Virus record (IMG/VR): IMGVR_UViG_3300048927_000035
Location: 1 to 34,125 of that record
Origin: a virus
Strand: one strand, 5' to 3'
Length of the DNA stretch: 34,125 nucleotides
Below the pieces are notes generated by a model that saw only the letters and a program-made list of their open reading frames with translations, had not been told where the DNA came from and did no database searches. A program made the translations under genes and the position numbers. Shown in pieces: positions 27,868-31,144 of the stretch; position 1 is the first letter of the stretch; every line of letters starts with the position of its first letter.

Positions 27868-28833
27868 TTAAATACCGATAACGGTTGAGGCACGTTTCTC
27901 TTTGCTGCGCAGGTTAACACGTCCACGAGACAGGCTCTGACATGAAGTACAACGTAACACTTGGAACGTACTGACAGCCGTATTGTAGAACTTGCCAGCC
28001 ACTGGCACAAGGTGGTCTTTACCACAACGAGGACAACGGCGAAGCTCATCTTCGTAGTATGCTGCCAGGTTAGGGTGCTGAGGAATCCAGGCCAGGATTT
28101 TGATATACAGATCACGCAGTGACACAACATCGCCATCGTTGTAAGTCTGCATACGTCCGAACGCATCGCGATCACCTTCGCAACATGCTTTCCAGAGTGG
28201 GAATCCTTCGTTATCCAGTTTTTCACTTTCGGTTTCGAAGTATGCGCCCATCTCTTTCAGAGAGTTGGATGGTAATGCAAACTGTTTCTTGGCAGCTTTC
28301 AGTGTGTCCACAACTACGTAGGTAGATGGTGGTTGCATACCGTGGAATGCGAAACGTTGGTTGATGTAAGCTCGGTCAAACTTATAACCGTTATGTGCTA
28401 CAACAACATCTGCTTCGTCCAGAATACGCCACAGGTCTTGACATAATTCCCAATCATCTGTATGATCAATATCGAACAGCGGATAATCGCTAAGGTTCTT
28501 ACCTTCTACTTCTCCGGTGTACAGATCAGAGATGGAGTAGGAAAGCAGGTAGCCACGTTTGATCACCTGATCTGGCGAAATGAAAGCCTTGAATCTGCGG
28601 AAGCTGTAAACGATTTCTGGCGCTGTCTCAACGTCAATAATCTTTATTACAGGCTTTTTAACTGCATCTTCAACTTCGAACACTTCGTCAAAGTTTTCTC
28701 GTGCAAGGAAGTCGTTGACTGTACTTTTACGAGTTGCGCTACCAAGTACGGTAGCGGCGATGTGACGTGAAGAATAACCAGCAGCTTTCATTGATGTGAT
28801 TGCAACTTTCTGCTCGTTTGTTAATTTACTCAA
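27868..28833 (-). CDS. HTH + DnaQ-like 3'-5' exonuclease + zinc ribbon
   Basis: 321 residues from a TTG that overlaps the upstream stop (TTGA), SD AGGAGG. Residues 1-50 form a resolvase-type HTH (EQKVAITSMKAAGYSSRHIAATVLG is the helix pair). From about 60 there is an RNase H-fold exonuclease: IIDVET (D67, E69), VVAHNGYKFD (N147, D152) and MQTYNDGDV (D232, D234). The C-terminus has zinc pairs C266-C269 and C294-C297. A DNA-binding, proofreading-like nuclease for phage replication or host DNA turnover is a fair inference. Coupled to the 5'-3' exonuclease. Confidence 0.85.
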   Translation of the reverse strand: MSKLTNEQKVAITSMKAAGYSSRHIAATVLGSATRKSTVNDFLARENFDEVFEVEDAVKKPVIKIIDVETAPEIVYSFRRFKAFISPDQVIKRGYLLSYSISDLYTGEVEGKNLSDYPLFDIDHTDDWELCQDLWRILDEADVVVAHNGYKFDRAYINQRFAFHGMQPPSTYVVVDTLKAAKKQFALPSNSLKEMGAYFETESEKLDNEGFPLWKACCEGDRDAFGRMQTYNDGDVVSLRDLYIKILAWIPQHPNLAAYYEDELRRCPRCGKDHLVPVAGKFYNTAVSTFQVLRCTSCQSLSRGRVNLRSKEKRASTVIGI

Positions 28834-29966
28834 TTTTCCTCCTGAATGGACAGTGCTTCGTCCTGTTCTGCTTCGTATGCTTTTAACATACTCTCAAATG
28901 TTGTTTCATCATTTTCCCAACGCTTCATGTAAACCAGTTGGAAGATTGTTTCTATCCATGCATCAGTTTCCATCCAAGTATCTTTTCCATCCCACGAGGT
29001 AAAACTTACACCATCAGGGAACCATTTGTGATATTGGGCTTTAACTGTGTTGAATAGTTCAGCTTGTGTCTTACACTCTGAGATCAGATTGAAGCAAGCC
29101 ATATCTCCGAACTTGATACCGAAGTCTTGGTAAGGACGAATACTATCTGTCTTGTCGCCCATTAGCATCTGATAAGCCAACCACATGCTACCCCAACCCT
29201 TAATTTCTTTCTTCTTACCCTTCTCTACAACCCAAATCTCACCAATCGAATCGTCGATGAGAATGATGTAAGGTTGTTTGAAAACGCCGTCTTCTTTGTA
29301 GAAGTTGAAGAGCAAACTTGGAGTCGAGAGACTATCTTTATCAATGGACACTACGATGTGTGAGAACTTTCCAGTTTCTTTATAGGCTTTCCAGCCTGAG
29401 TAACCGAAGATTTCCAGAGCGTCATCTGCTTCAAGTCCCGTAACAACGTCACCATTGTGTTGTTCCACAAGGTAATCTTTCGTGTCAGATAGTTGAAGAG
29501 GTTTTATTTCAGATCGTTCAGATTTGTATTCTGTTGGCATCGCGAAGGAATGCCGGAAGGTCTTGCCTACGCCGATAACACCACAGTATTTTCTCAGTTT
29601 GAGATGTTCCATGATACCAGCGATTTTTGTCTTTGCAGCTTGGAATGTGAAAGCTATTTTCTCAGGTACTTCTTGCACGTCTAAGATATCAAAATCTTCT
29701 TTGGTGAATGGGCGTTTACCTTCTTGTTCTCGTGAGGCATTTAGTGCTCCGAGCCAGCCCTCAATTTCGTGCTTCTTATTTCCCCAAAACTCTGTTCTAT
29801 TCGCAAACTCTTTTACGTTACCGGAAGCCTTGTGTACGGCGTGGATACTGCGCTTTTCCAATGCAGATGCTGCTTGGAATGCTATCTGATCGTAGTCAAT
29901 TGCTGCAATCGTATCTTCATCAACGTATTTGTGTAGGTCTTCCGGCTCAATTAATATGTAACCGAT
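28830..29966 (-). CDS. 5'-3' exonuclease (T7 gp6 / T5 D15-like), ATC start
   Basis: 378 residues if begun at an ATC at 29966. AIDYDQIAFQAASALEKR (about 22-39) matches the first conserved block of phage 5'-3' exonucleases, with the metal-binding Asp; GLEADD is the second acidic block, VSIDKDSLST the third and MGDKTDSIRPYQDFG the fourth, as in T7 gp6. A TTG at 29861 would remove the first block. No in-frame ATG, GTG or TTG precedes it: TAA is at 29969-29967, then ATC with AGGAGG five bases ahead. It trims or removes RNA primers and recesses 5' ends. The next gene overlaps it by four bases. Confidence 0.85.
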   Translation of the reverse strand: MGYILIEPEDLHKYVDEDTIAAIDYDQIAFQAASALEKRSIHAVHKASGNVKEFANRTEFWGNKKHEIEGWLGALNASREQEGKRPFTKEDFDILDVQEVPEKIAFTFQAAKTKIAGIMEHLKLRKYCGVIGVGKTFRHSFAMPTEYKSERSEIKPLQLSDTKDYLVEQHNGDVVTGLEADDALEIFGYSGWKAYKETGKFSHIVVSIDKDSLSTPSLLFNFYKEDGVFKQPYIILIDDSIGEIWVVEKGKKKEIKGWGSMWLAYQMLMGDKTDSIRPYQDFGIKFGDMACFNLISECKTQAELFNTVKAQYHKWFPDGVSFTSWDGKDTWMETDAWIETIFQLVYMKRWENDETTFESMLKAYEAEQDEALSIQEEN

Positions 29967-29977
29967 TTACTCCTCCT
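29964..29977 (-). promoter_or_regulatory. AGGAGG SD and ATC start of the 5'-3' exonuclease
   Basis: AGGAGG, five bases, then ATC, immediately after the TAG stop of the secreted-protein gene. It is the only good SD near the start of the conserved exonuclease frame. Confidence 0.6.
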
Positions 29978-30185
29978 ATTCATCATCCTCGTCTGTACTA
30001 AACGTGCGTGTCCCAGGACACTGACGATTTGCGGATACTTCGTAGGTGAAGTCATAATTGGAGTTGGAATAGAAGCAAACTTTTGTATCACCATTCACAG
30101 CCTCACCAGAGTTTGGAATCGTAATTTGCCCTGCTGTTGCAGAAGCACTTGCCACTAACAGTAAAGCCATCAGAATCTTGTTCAT
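29976..30185 (-). CDS. Small secreted periplasmic protein
   Basis: 69 residues; ATG with AAGGAG. The N-terminus NKILMALLLVASASATA is a classic Sec signal with a signal-peptidase site after ATA. The mature part is about 50 residues with two cysteines (VCFYSNSN and RQCPGT), likely disulfide-linked, and an acidic end. Exported phage proteins can alter the envelope or block superinfection; none of this is shown here. It lies downstream of a candidate promoter and hairpin. Confidence 0.78.
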   Translation of the reverse strand: MNKILMALLLVASASATAGQITIPNSGEAVNGDTKVCFYSNSNYDFTYEVSANRQCPGTRTFSTDEDDE

Positions 30186-30259: not shown

Positions 30260-31144
30260 TTATTTATCGAAAGTTGCGCTTTTCAGATCAGCAAGCACAC
30301 CACGAATCTCGTTGAAGCACAGCAGTGCTGCCGCTTCGATACTTCCTTCCTCATCGTTGAAGTATTTCGGGAACTTCACTCCGCTAAGGCGGAACTCTTT
30401 ATCGACAACAAAGTTCACTACACCGTCAAACTCCAGACCGATAGCAACAACGGATTTACCATCTTCTTTCAGTTCAAGAGCCTTAGACTCGTACAGGGAT
30501 TCTTTGCTCCACACTACAACACCTTCATCATCTTCCAGTTTGATGTAGTTACCCAGAGTCAGGCGTTCATGTTCGTGAGTTTCCAGAATGTCACCGAAGC
30601 CTTTCACGATTACTTCTTCATGCACACCAAAACCCATCACAGGGAAGCTACCCAGAACATCACGTAGGAAGATAGAGATCTCTTCGCTGATTTTCTTACT
30701 ACCATTGATAACATACACAATATCAGTGGTGGTATCAACTACTACGTAGTTATAGAAATCATCTGCCTCTGTCTCAGGGAGCAGGGAGAAAATGATATCC
30801 GCTTCTACGGCTTTCTTACTTTCTTTATCCAGGAAGAACTCTTTACCTGGACTTTCCAGCAGGAAAGCTTCCTCCATAGTTTTGATTTTTGCTGCCAGAA
30901 GACGTTTAACTTTCTTCTTGTTCACTTTCTTCACAGACTGACCAACGTTGATCATCTGGAGGCCAGAGAACTCTTTCACGTAGGAGTTGTCGTCCTCAAA
31001 CTTTACCAGCCCAATGGTGTGGGCTTGCTGTCCTTCTGCGATAACGAAATCCAGTGGACGATCTGTAATGCTGTTCAGCGCAGAGATAGATAAACCTTCA
31101 CCAGCAGCCAGAGGCAGAACAGATTTGAAATTTTTCGCAAACAT
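30260..31144 (-). CDS. rdgC: RdgC-like recombination-associated protein
   Basis: 294 residues, close to the 303 of E. coli RdgC. Order and motifs match: KVKRLLAAKIKTMEEAF with the adjacent charged helix, then DIIFSLLPE (RdgC: VLHSLLPR), VVDTTTDIVYVINGSKKISEEI, FLRDVLGSFPVM (RdgC: LRKSLGSLPVV), then GVVVWSKESL, KSVVAIGLEFDGVVNFVVDKEFRLSGVKFP, all in the same order. RdgC forms a ring on DNA and restrains RecA. In a phage it could protect replicating DNA from host recombination or aid phage recombination. ATG with AAGGAG. Confidence 0.85.
   Translation of the reverse strand: MFAKNFKSVLPLAAGEGLSISALNSITDRPLDFVIAEGQQAHTIGLVKFEDDNSYVKEFSGLQMINVGQSVKKVNKKKVKRLLAAKIKTMEEAFLLESPGKEFFLDKESKKAVEADIIFSLLPETEADDFYNYVVVDTTTDIVYVINGSKKISEEISIFLRDVLGSFPVMGFGVHEEVIVKGFGDILETHEHERLTLGNYIKLEDDEGVVVWSKESLYESKALELKEDGKSVVAIGLEFDGVVNFVVDKEFRLSGVKFPKYFNDEEGSIEAAALLCFNEIRGVLADLKSATFDK

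What the first reader, a model, noticed from the sequence alone, without database searches (positions are those of the whole stretch)
29861..29966. 5'-3' exonuclease lacks ATG, GTG or TTG before its catalytic Asp; ATC likely
Seen: the 35 codons upstream of the TTG at 29861 encode AIDYDQIAFQAASALEKR, the conserved Asp-containing N-terminal block of T7 gp6/T5 D15-type exonucleases. The frame is closed by TAA at 29969-29967, and the first codon after it is ATC, with AGGAGG at five-base spacing. No ATG, GTG or TTG lies in between. An ATC (or ATT/ATA) start would be rare and could hold expression low. A base error or a frameshift from the upstream gene is the alternative.
Basis: partly seen in the sequence, partly recalled or inferred. 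Interest (0 to 1): 0.75.

Follow-up and report, generated by a model that had tools for sequence, protein, structure and literature searches.

The report
Phage exonuclease gene starting at AUC
A DNA-cutting enzyme gene in a group of bacterial viruses seems to begin at the very rare start codon AUC or AUU instead of AUG; every relative examined shares this oddity, and many database entries therefore list the enzyme with its active-site end missing.

Summary
On the minus strand the exonuclease frame is closed by TAA; ATC (29966-29964) follows, five bases after AGGAGG, with no ATG/GTG/TTG before the catalytic Asp. It is not a sequencing error: all 32 sequences read (window, 21 GenBank records, 10 IMG/VR contigs) have ATT or ATC there behind a Shine-Dalgarno (SD) sequence. 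Vequintavirinae homologues have ATG/GTG/TTG in that column. The ATT/ATC rows form one clade, one change. The 35 codons before TTG 29861 are under purifying selection, fold confidently and carry two invariant Asps. The TTG is TTA/CTA/GTA/CTG in relatives. Best explanation: initiation at AUC/AUU, as in infC and pcnB, on a strong SD just after a small upstream gene, probably with low yield (inferred). Of 18 deposits whose exonuclease start was seen, 17 begin it downstream; ESCO13 begins at the ATT. A glycosyltransferase in a sister lineage also seems to start at ATC.

The parts
29964..29966 (-). ATC initiation codon (proposed); ATT or ATC at this place in all relatives read
29972..29977 (-). Shine-Dalgarno AGGAGG, 5-nt spacer to the ATC
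29967..29969 (-). in-frame TAA directly before the ATC; no in-frame start can lie upstream
28830..29966 (-). 5'-3' exonuclease (FEN fold, PHROG 107), 378 codons plus TGA stop
29862..29966 (-). 35 N-terminal codons lost if the TTG is taken as the start; conserved coding sequence under purifying selection
29895..29897 (-). codon of Asp24 (GAC), invariant; probably the first metal ligand
   Evidence: the equivalence to the ligands of T5 D15 / T4 RNase H is inferred from aligned ranges and recall
29889..29891 (-). codon of Asp26 (GAT), invariant
29859..29861 (-). TTG, first canonical codon in frame; unlikely start (TTA/CTA/GTA/CTG in relatives, no SD)
29976..30185 (-). upstream 69-aa gene with signal-peptide-like start (PHROG 4641); its TAG stop overlaps the SD and ends 9 nt before the ATC
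27868..28833 (-). downstream gene, DNA polymerase exonuclease subunit (PHROG 403), TTG start overlapping the exonuclease stop, with its own AGGAGG
30260..31144 (-). RdgC-like recombination-associated gene (PHROG 724), conserved neighbour

Best explanation
The gene is an intact 378-residue FEN-type 5'-3' exonuclease of a Stephanstirmvirinae-like phage. Its translation starts at AUC (window 29966). A strong Shine-Dalgarno sequence at good spacing places the codon in the P site, and the host's fMet-tRNA pairs with AUC through its first two bases (inferred), so the protein starts with Met. The clade's common ancestor lost the ATG/GTG/TTG that homologues use at the same position, and the descendants kept AUU or AUC. 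The likely effect, inferred from infC, pcnB and S. aureus cvfC1/ccpN, is a low yield that depends on IF3, perhaps helped by ribosomes finishing the upstream gene 8-18 nt away. Shown: codon, SD, conservation, homologous canonical starts, selection on the N-terminus, predicted fold. Inferred: actual initiation there, low yield, coupling.
For: Closed frame, SD and ATC in the window. ATT/ATC in 32 of 32 sequences read: ATC in 7, ATT in 25. A sum of 115 phage records have an 81-base start region at least 99% identical, over the aligned part, to a type read here (48, 54, 4, 3 and 6), against 133 records matched; overlap and membership were not checked record by record. The start codons of Vequintavirinae homologues L026-L029 sit in the same column (I-GYI versus M-GYP). 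In one search, 19 of 25 IMG/VR outgroup loci were parsed: 17 have ATG/GTG/TTG 20-25 codons before the Asp, 2 have ATG 8 codons before. One change on the tree, ATT/ATC group 17 of 17 rows, support 99/100. N-terminal codons: dN 0.01-0.23; dS above 1 or not computable in 34 of 36 pairs. AF2 mean pLDDT 93.1, strand 15-24 ending at Asp24; Z 16.0 to ExoIX and 14.6 to T5 D15 from residue 17-18 on. In the window and two relatives, five AGGAGG sites without a canonical start open a frame of 80 or more codons; four have ATT/ATC, three of these being the exonuclease itself. The ESCO13 deposit annotates the CDS from ATT with an RBS.
Against: No expression, N-terminal or ribosome-profiling data were found. 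Some lineages have a canonical codon between the ATY and the first Asp: TTG at codon 12 in L008/L013, GTG two codons before the Asp in the L018-L024 type. A start there would keep the Asp in those lineages, though no SD precedes it and it is not shared; the PsgM04F and phiWec188 deposits use that TTG. An abstract (PMC10158994) says IF3 excludes weak third-base pairs, which would disfavour AUC/AUU and could give some product lacking fMet. 9 of 133 records are not covered by the counts.
Confidence: 0.9

Rival explanations
1. Programmed frameshift or stop-codon readthrough from the upstream gene makes a fusion protein.
For: The upstream gene ends 8-18 nt before the ATY in the eight sequences compared, and is in the same frame as the exonuclease in six of them (9, 9, 12, 15, 18, 18 nt). 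The window reads ATG ATG AAT AGG AGG in another frame across the junction.
Against: The upstream product starts like a signal peptide, which does not suit a DNA enzyme. In L006 (8 nt) and L008 (11 nt) it is out of frame, so one mechanism cannot serve all. The window would need two stops (TAG, TAA) read through. Odds were raised from 0.03 to 0.04 after noting that six of eight are in frame.
Confidence: 0.04
2. Translation starts at a downstream canonical codon (TTG 29861 here), giving a shortened protein, as most deposits seen annotate.
For: It is the first ATG/GTG/TTG in frame. Of 18 deposits whose exonuclease start was seen, 17 use a downstream start: 229 residues in 7, 344 in 8, 363 in 2, computed from coordinates.
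Against: It removes Asp24 and Asp26, invariant in 28 of 28 rows, and the first core strand. The TTG is TTA, CTA, GTA or CTG in the eight other types compared. No SD precedes it. Deposited starts differ between relatives.
Confidence: 0.03
3. Initiation is at another near-cognate codon (ATA or ATT a few codons on).
For: ATA is codon 4 and ATT codon 6 in the window.
Against: They lie 14 and 20 nt from the SD and are not the column of the Vequintavirinae start codons. The first codon is always ATT/ATC, 4-5 nt from GGAGG or GGGGG.
Confidence: 0.02
4. Sequencing error or dead gene in the window.
For: The window is a single 34,125-base virus record.
Against: Same state in many separately deposited phages; purifying selection.
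Confidence: 0.01

Closest known systems
E. coli infC (IF3) and pcnB, the AUU-start genes
   Same: ATT-class start codon; expected low, IF3-sensitive initiation (passages of PMC9410913 and PMC2268962)
   Different: Phage nuclease rather than host gene; AUC as well as AUU; no autoregulation expected; nothing measured
S. aureus cvfC1 (AUU) and ccpN (AUA) conserved non-canonical starts
   Same: Strong SD and conserved non-canonical codon (passages of PMC13009471)
   Different: Those were shown by ribosome profiling and reporters; this one rests on comparative sequence only
Phage T5 D15 / T4 RNase H / E. coli ExoIX FEN family
   Same: Predicted fold and a set of invariant acidic residues
   Different: About 14-17% identity; no hit in Pfam at E 0.001 or PDB sequences at E 1; unusual start codon
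Vequintavirinae homologues (W70, GEC_vB_MG, CR3, slur12)
   Same: Homologous exonuclease, 41-43% identity, same N-terminal block
   Different: ATG, GTG or TTG at the homologous start; different upstream gene

Membership tests
Genes with a conserved AUU/AUC/AUA start codon (infC/pcnB kind) | No canonical start between upstream in-frame stop and essential N-terminus | tested here: met
   Window: none before Asp24. Not met to the letter in some relatives: L008/L013 (TTG) and the L018-L024 type (GTG) have one before the Asp, without SD.
Genes with a conserved AUU/AUC/AUA start codon (infC/pcnB kind) | SD at normal spacing to the codon | tested here: met
   GGAGG or GGGGG 4-5 nt upstream in the 23 loci listed and in the window
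Genes with a conserved AUU/AUC/AUA start codon (infC/pcnB kind) | Codon conserved among orthologues and aligned with canonical starts of outgroups | tested here: met
Genes with a conserved AUU/AUC/AUA start codon (infC/pcnB kind) | Initiation at the codon shown by N-terminal peptide, toeprint or profiling | not testable with these tools
   no such data held
Genes with a conserved AUU/AUC/AUA start codon (infC/pcnB kind) | Sensitivity to IF3 level | not testable with these tools
   bench test proposed
FEN-type 5'-3' exonuclease | FEN fold | tested here: met
   AF2 mean pLDDT 93.1. Best rows: plastid exonuclease 9l56 Z 16.8 (rmsd 3.7, 226 aligned), ExoIX 3zda 16.0 (2.9, 215), T5 D15 5hp4 14.6 (3.4, 224), T4 RNase H 2ihn 13.9 (4.0, 229)
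FEN-type 5'-3' exonuclease | Conserved acidic metal ligands | tested here: met
   D24, D26, E179, D181, D182, D209, D211, D271, D274 invariant in 28 of 28 rows; residue-by-residue match to the T5/T4 ligands was not printed and is inferred
FEN-type 5'-3' exonuclease | Profile match | tested here: met
   PHROG 107 exonuclease, E 1e-60; but no Pfam family at E 0.001
FEN-type 5'-3' exonuclease | Nuclease activity | not testable with these tools
   none

The most novel reading that the evidence does not exclude
AUU/AUC starts are a recurrent regulatory device of this phage group rather than one frozen accident. The exonuclease has one throughout the clade, and a glycosyltransferase gained AUC separately in one sister lineage. 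Such starts would let the phage sense initiation stringency (IF3) or rely on its own variant initiator-like tRNA.
Probability: 0.2. Interest if true: 0.8.

Novelty: new member of a known kind. Interest (0 to 1): 0.58.

Why it matters
AUU/AUC-started genes are very rare: a passage of PMC9410913 says that only two E. coli genes start at AUU. A phage group that fixed such a start on a replication/recombination nuclease, and kept it while the protein diverged to about 61% identity, gives a natural series for asking what a near-cognate start is for. It also corrects database entries that lack the catalytic N-terminus, and shows that gene finders restricted to ATG/GTG/TTG cut real enzymes.

Tried and rejected
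Sequencing error, pseudogene, fusion with the upstream gene and downstream TTG start were each considered and rejected (see rivals). mRNA folding around the start gave z-scores between -1.57 and 0.70 in eight sequences, so no sign of a special structure. No tRNA and no Rfam family at gathering score in the window. A phage tRNA-Ile(GAU) reading AUU/AUC as a special initiator was considered: the two seen have a U-G or U-A first pair but ordinary anticodon stems, so there is no real support. A variant initiator-like tRNA-Met is present in G001, but no tRNA-Met was found in 140,000 of 141,261 bases of G002, so it is not required. PDB and Pfam sequence searches gave nothing; the fold comparison did.

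Literature: the listings of searches (titles and starts of abstracts) showed no paper on an AUU/AUC-started phage exonuclease. One listed paper on Yersinia rcsD (PMC10191623) holds the phrase 'AUU start codon' and was not opened. The held text of the ESCO13 genome paper (PMC5374246) has no hit for start, codon, ATT, exonuclease or manual. Of PMC10158994 I saw the abstract and outline; of PMC13009471, PMC9410913 and PMC2268962, passages. The 64-codon paper (10.1093/nar/gkx070) is not held.

Counts left open: 9 of 133 GenBank records were neither read nor matched at 99% or better. In one search, 6 of 25 IMG/VR loci were not parsed by the script (L051, L053, L054, L056, L057, L060). The 20 canonical rows are 7 annotated starts (which annotators choose among canonical codons) and 13 picked by a script that looks for a canonical codon near the expected place; both favour 'canonical', although searches show the codons themselves. 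That tree has 32 different rows of 37, is rooted at the midpoint, and carries a warning that long branches (L030, L031) meet the ATT/ATC group. For three of the 21 GenBank records (L123-L125) the fetched stretch was too short to see where the exonuclease is annotated. A row (OX090893.1) lists an exonuclease feature under the start region, so a second deposit may begin before the Asp; it was not opened.

Full report
What is there. The window's minus strand carries ...AATAGGAGGAGTAAATCGGTTAC... The exonuclease frame is shut by TAA (29969-29967) directly before ATC (29966-29964), which stands five bases after AGGAGG. The first ATG/GTG/TTG in frame is TTG 29861, 35 codons later. Its absence over 35 codons alone would occur by chance about one time in six. 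What makes it notable is that these codons hold IDYDQIAFQAASA, the start of the nuclease domain.

Relatives. blastn found 133 phage records; by the taxonomy lines of those fetched they are mostly Stephanstirmvirinae. I read the start region in 21 GenBank records (13, ESCO13, seven more), in 10 IMG/VR contigs and in the window. All 32 have ATT (25) or ATC (7) behind an SD; none has ATG, GTG or TTG there. Examples are TAGGAGGTAAT-ATT, TAGGAGGGTAAT-ATC, TAGGGGGAAAT-ATT, TAGGAGGAAAG-ATT and TAGGAGGATGTT-ATT. Matches at 99% or better to an 81-base start region of a type read here number 48, 54, 4, 3 and 6 records, 115 in sum. With nine more read directly (L004, L011, L119-L125) this makes about 124 against the 133; overlap and membership were not checked row by row, and 9 were not seen. 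Some lineages do hold a canonical codon between the ATY and the catalytic Asp (TTG in L008/L013, GTG in the L018-L024 type). These have no SD and are not shared.

Origin. Homologues outside the group (35-43% identity) start with ATG, GTG or TTG. In the Vequintavirinae rows L026-L029 the start stands in the same alignment column: M-GYPVI against I-GYILI. Of 25 IMG/VR outgroup loci, 19 were parsed; 17 have a canonical codon 20-25 codons before the Asp and 2 have ATG 8 codons before. On a tree of 37 rows the 17 ATT/ATC rows form one group with support 99/100 and one change. One loss of a canonical start, followed by retention, is the simplest account. The root is the midpoint, some outgroup branches are long, and the tool warns of long branches meeting this group.

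Is the N-terminus real protein? Among nine types, codons 2-35 differ mainly at third positions (pooled differences 201, 179 and 608 at positions 1, 2 and 3). dN is 0.01-0.23, and dS is above 1 or not computable in 34 of 36 pairs. AlphaFold2 on 28 sequences gives mean pLDDT 93.1, with residues 1-20 at 91-97 in block means and a core strand at 15-24. The fold is FEN: plastid exonuclease Z 16.8, ExoIX 16.0, T5 D15 14.6, T4 RNase H 13.9; Foldseek E 8e-6 for ExoIX. Asp24, Asp26, Glu179, Asp181, Asp182, Asp209 and Asp211 are invariant in 28 of 28 rows. A TTG start would remove Asp24, Asp26 and the strand. In the eight other types the TTG codon is TTA, CTA, GTA or CTG.

Mechanism. Initiation at AUC/AUU on a strong SD is the reading that fits all lineages seen. 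The upstream gene, a small protein with a signal-peptide-like start, ends 8-18 nt before the codon in the eight sequences compared, so terminating ribosomes could help. It is in frame with the exonuclease in six of these and out of frame in L006 and L008, which speaks against one readthrough or frameshift mechanism for all. Elevated IF3 inhibits initiation from non-canonical codons (PMC2268962, passages). IF3's own AUU start serves self-regulation, and pcnB is the other AUU gene of E. coli (PMC9410913, passages). Conserved AUU/AUA starts in S. aureus lower yield and come with extended SDs (PMC13009471, passages). [quoted passage not shown] By analogy I expect a low, IF3-sensitive yield; this is inferred.

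Annotation. Of the 21 GenBank records, the exonuclease's annotated start was seen in 18. Seventeen start it downstream: 229 residues in 7 (phAPEC8, anhysbys, FKP3 and others), 344 in 8 (alia, phi92 and others, just after the DYDQ block), 363 in 2 (PsgM04F and phiWec188, keeping the Asp). Lengths are computed from coordinates. The phi92 note reads 'No RBS identified; weak Prodigal statistics'. ESCO13 (KX552041.2) annotates the CDS from the ATT with an RBS, 372 residues; the held text of its paper has no hit for start, codon or ATT. In L123-L125 the fetched stretch was too short to tell. The ATT start is thus in at least one database entry, but the listings of my searches showed no paper on it.

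A second case. Scanning the window and two relatives (G001 whole, G002 but for its last 1,261 bases, both chosen because they hold the exonuclease) for AGGAGG sites without a canonical start that open a frame of 80 or more codons 4-6 nt on gave five sites: the three exonuclease starts, one GTC, and an ATC of a glycosyltransferase in G002. A search for relatives of that protein gave eight IMG/VR loci. Seven (L126-L130, L132, L133; 90-100% identity; L127 is G002 itself) have AGGAGG-N5-ATC-AGY. The eighth, L131 (61%), and FKP3 and alia have ATG within one codon of that place. This suggests a second, separate switch to AUC in this phage group. Its meaning is open.

Verdict. It is a new member of the known class of AUU/AUC-start genes, notable for its retention across a phage clade and for a likely second instance.

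Noticed in passing
L116:18550-17966 (minus), also L126-L130, L132, L133: Glycosyltransferase gene with AGGAGG-N5-ATC and, in G002, no canonical start for 38 codons after it; homologues in FKP3 (L134), alia (L135) and L131 start with ATG within one codon of that place. A likely second AUC-start gene in a sister lineage.
   Followed up: partly
L108:15105-15183 (minus): Phage tRNA-Met(CAT) with initiator-like features (C1 x C72 mismatch, A11-U24 by my reading) but without the GGG/CCC anticodon-stem pairs; similar tRNAs at 90% identity or more in 126 of 301 matching phage records; no tRNA-Met seen in G002.
   Followed up: partly
L116:11682 (plus): AGGAGG followed 6 nt on by GTC opening a 119-codon frame; probably chance.
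   Followed up: no
window 29976-30185: Conserved small protein gene with signal-peptide-like start (PHROG 4641, unknown function) just upstream of the exonuclease in all eight sequences compared; one record calls it a pili assembly chaperone.
   Followed up: no
window 28830-28833: The downstream polymerase-exonuclease subunit gene starts with TTG overlapping the exonuclease stop, behind its own AGGAGG.
   Followed up: no
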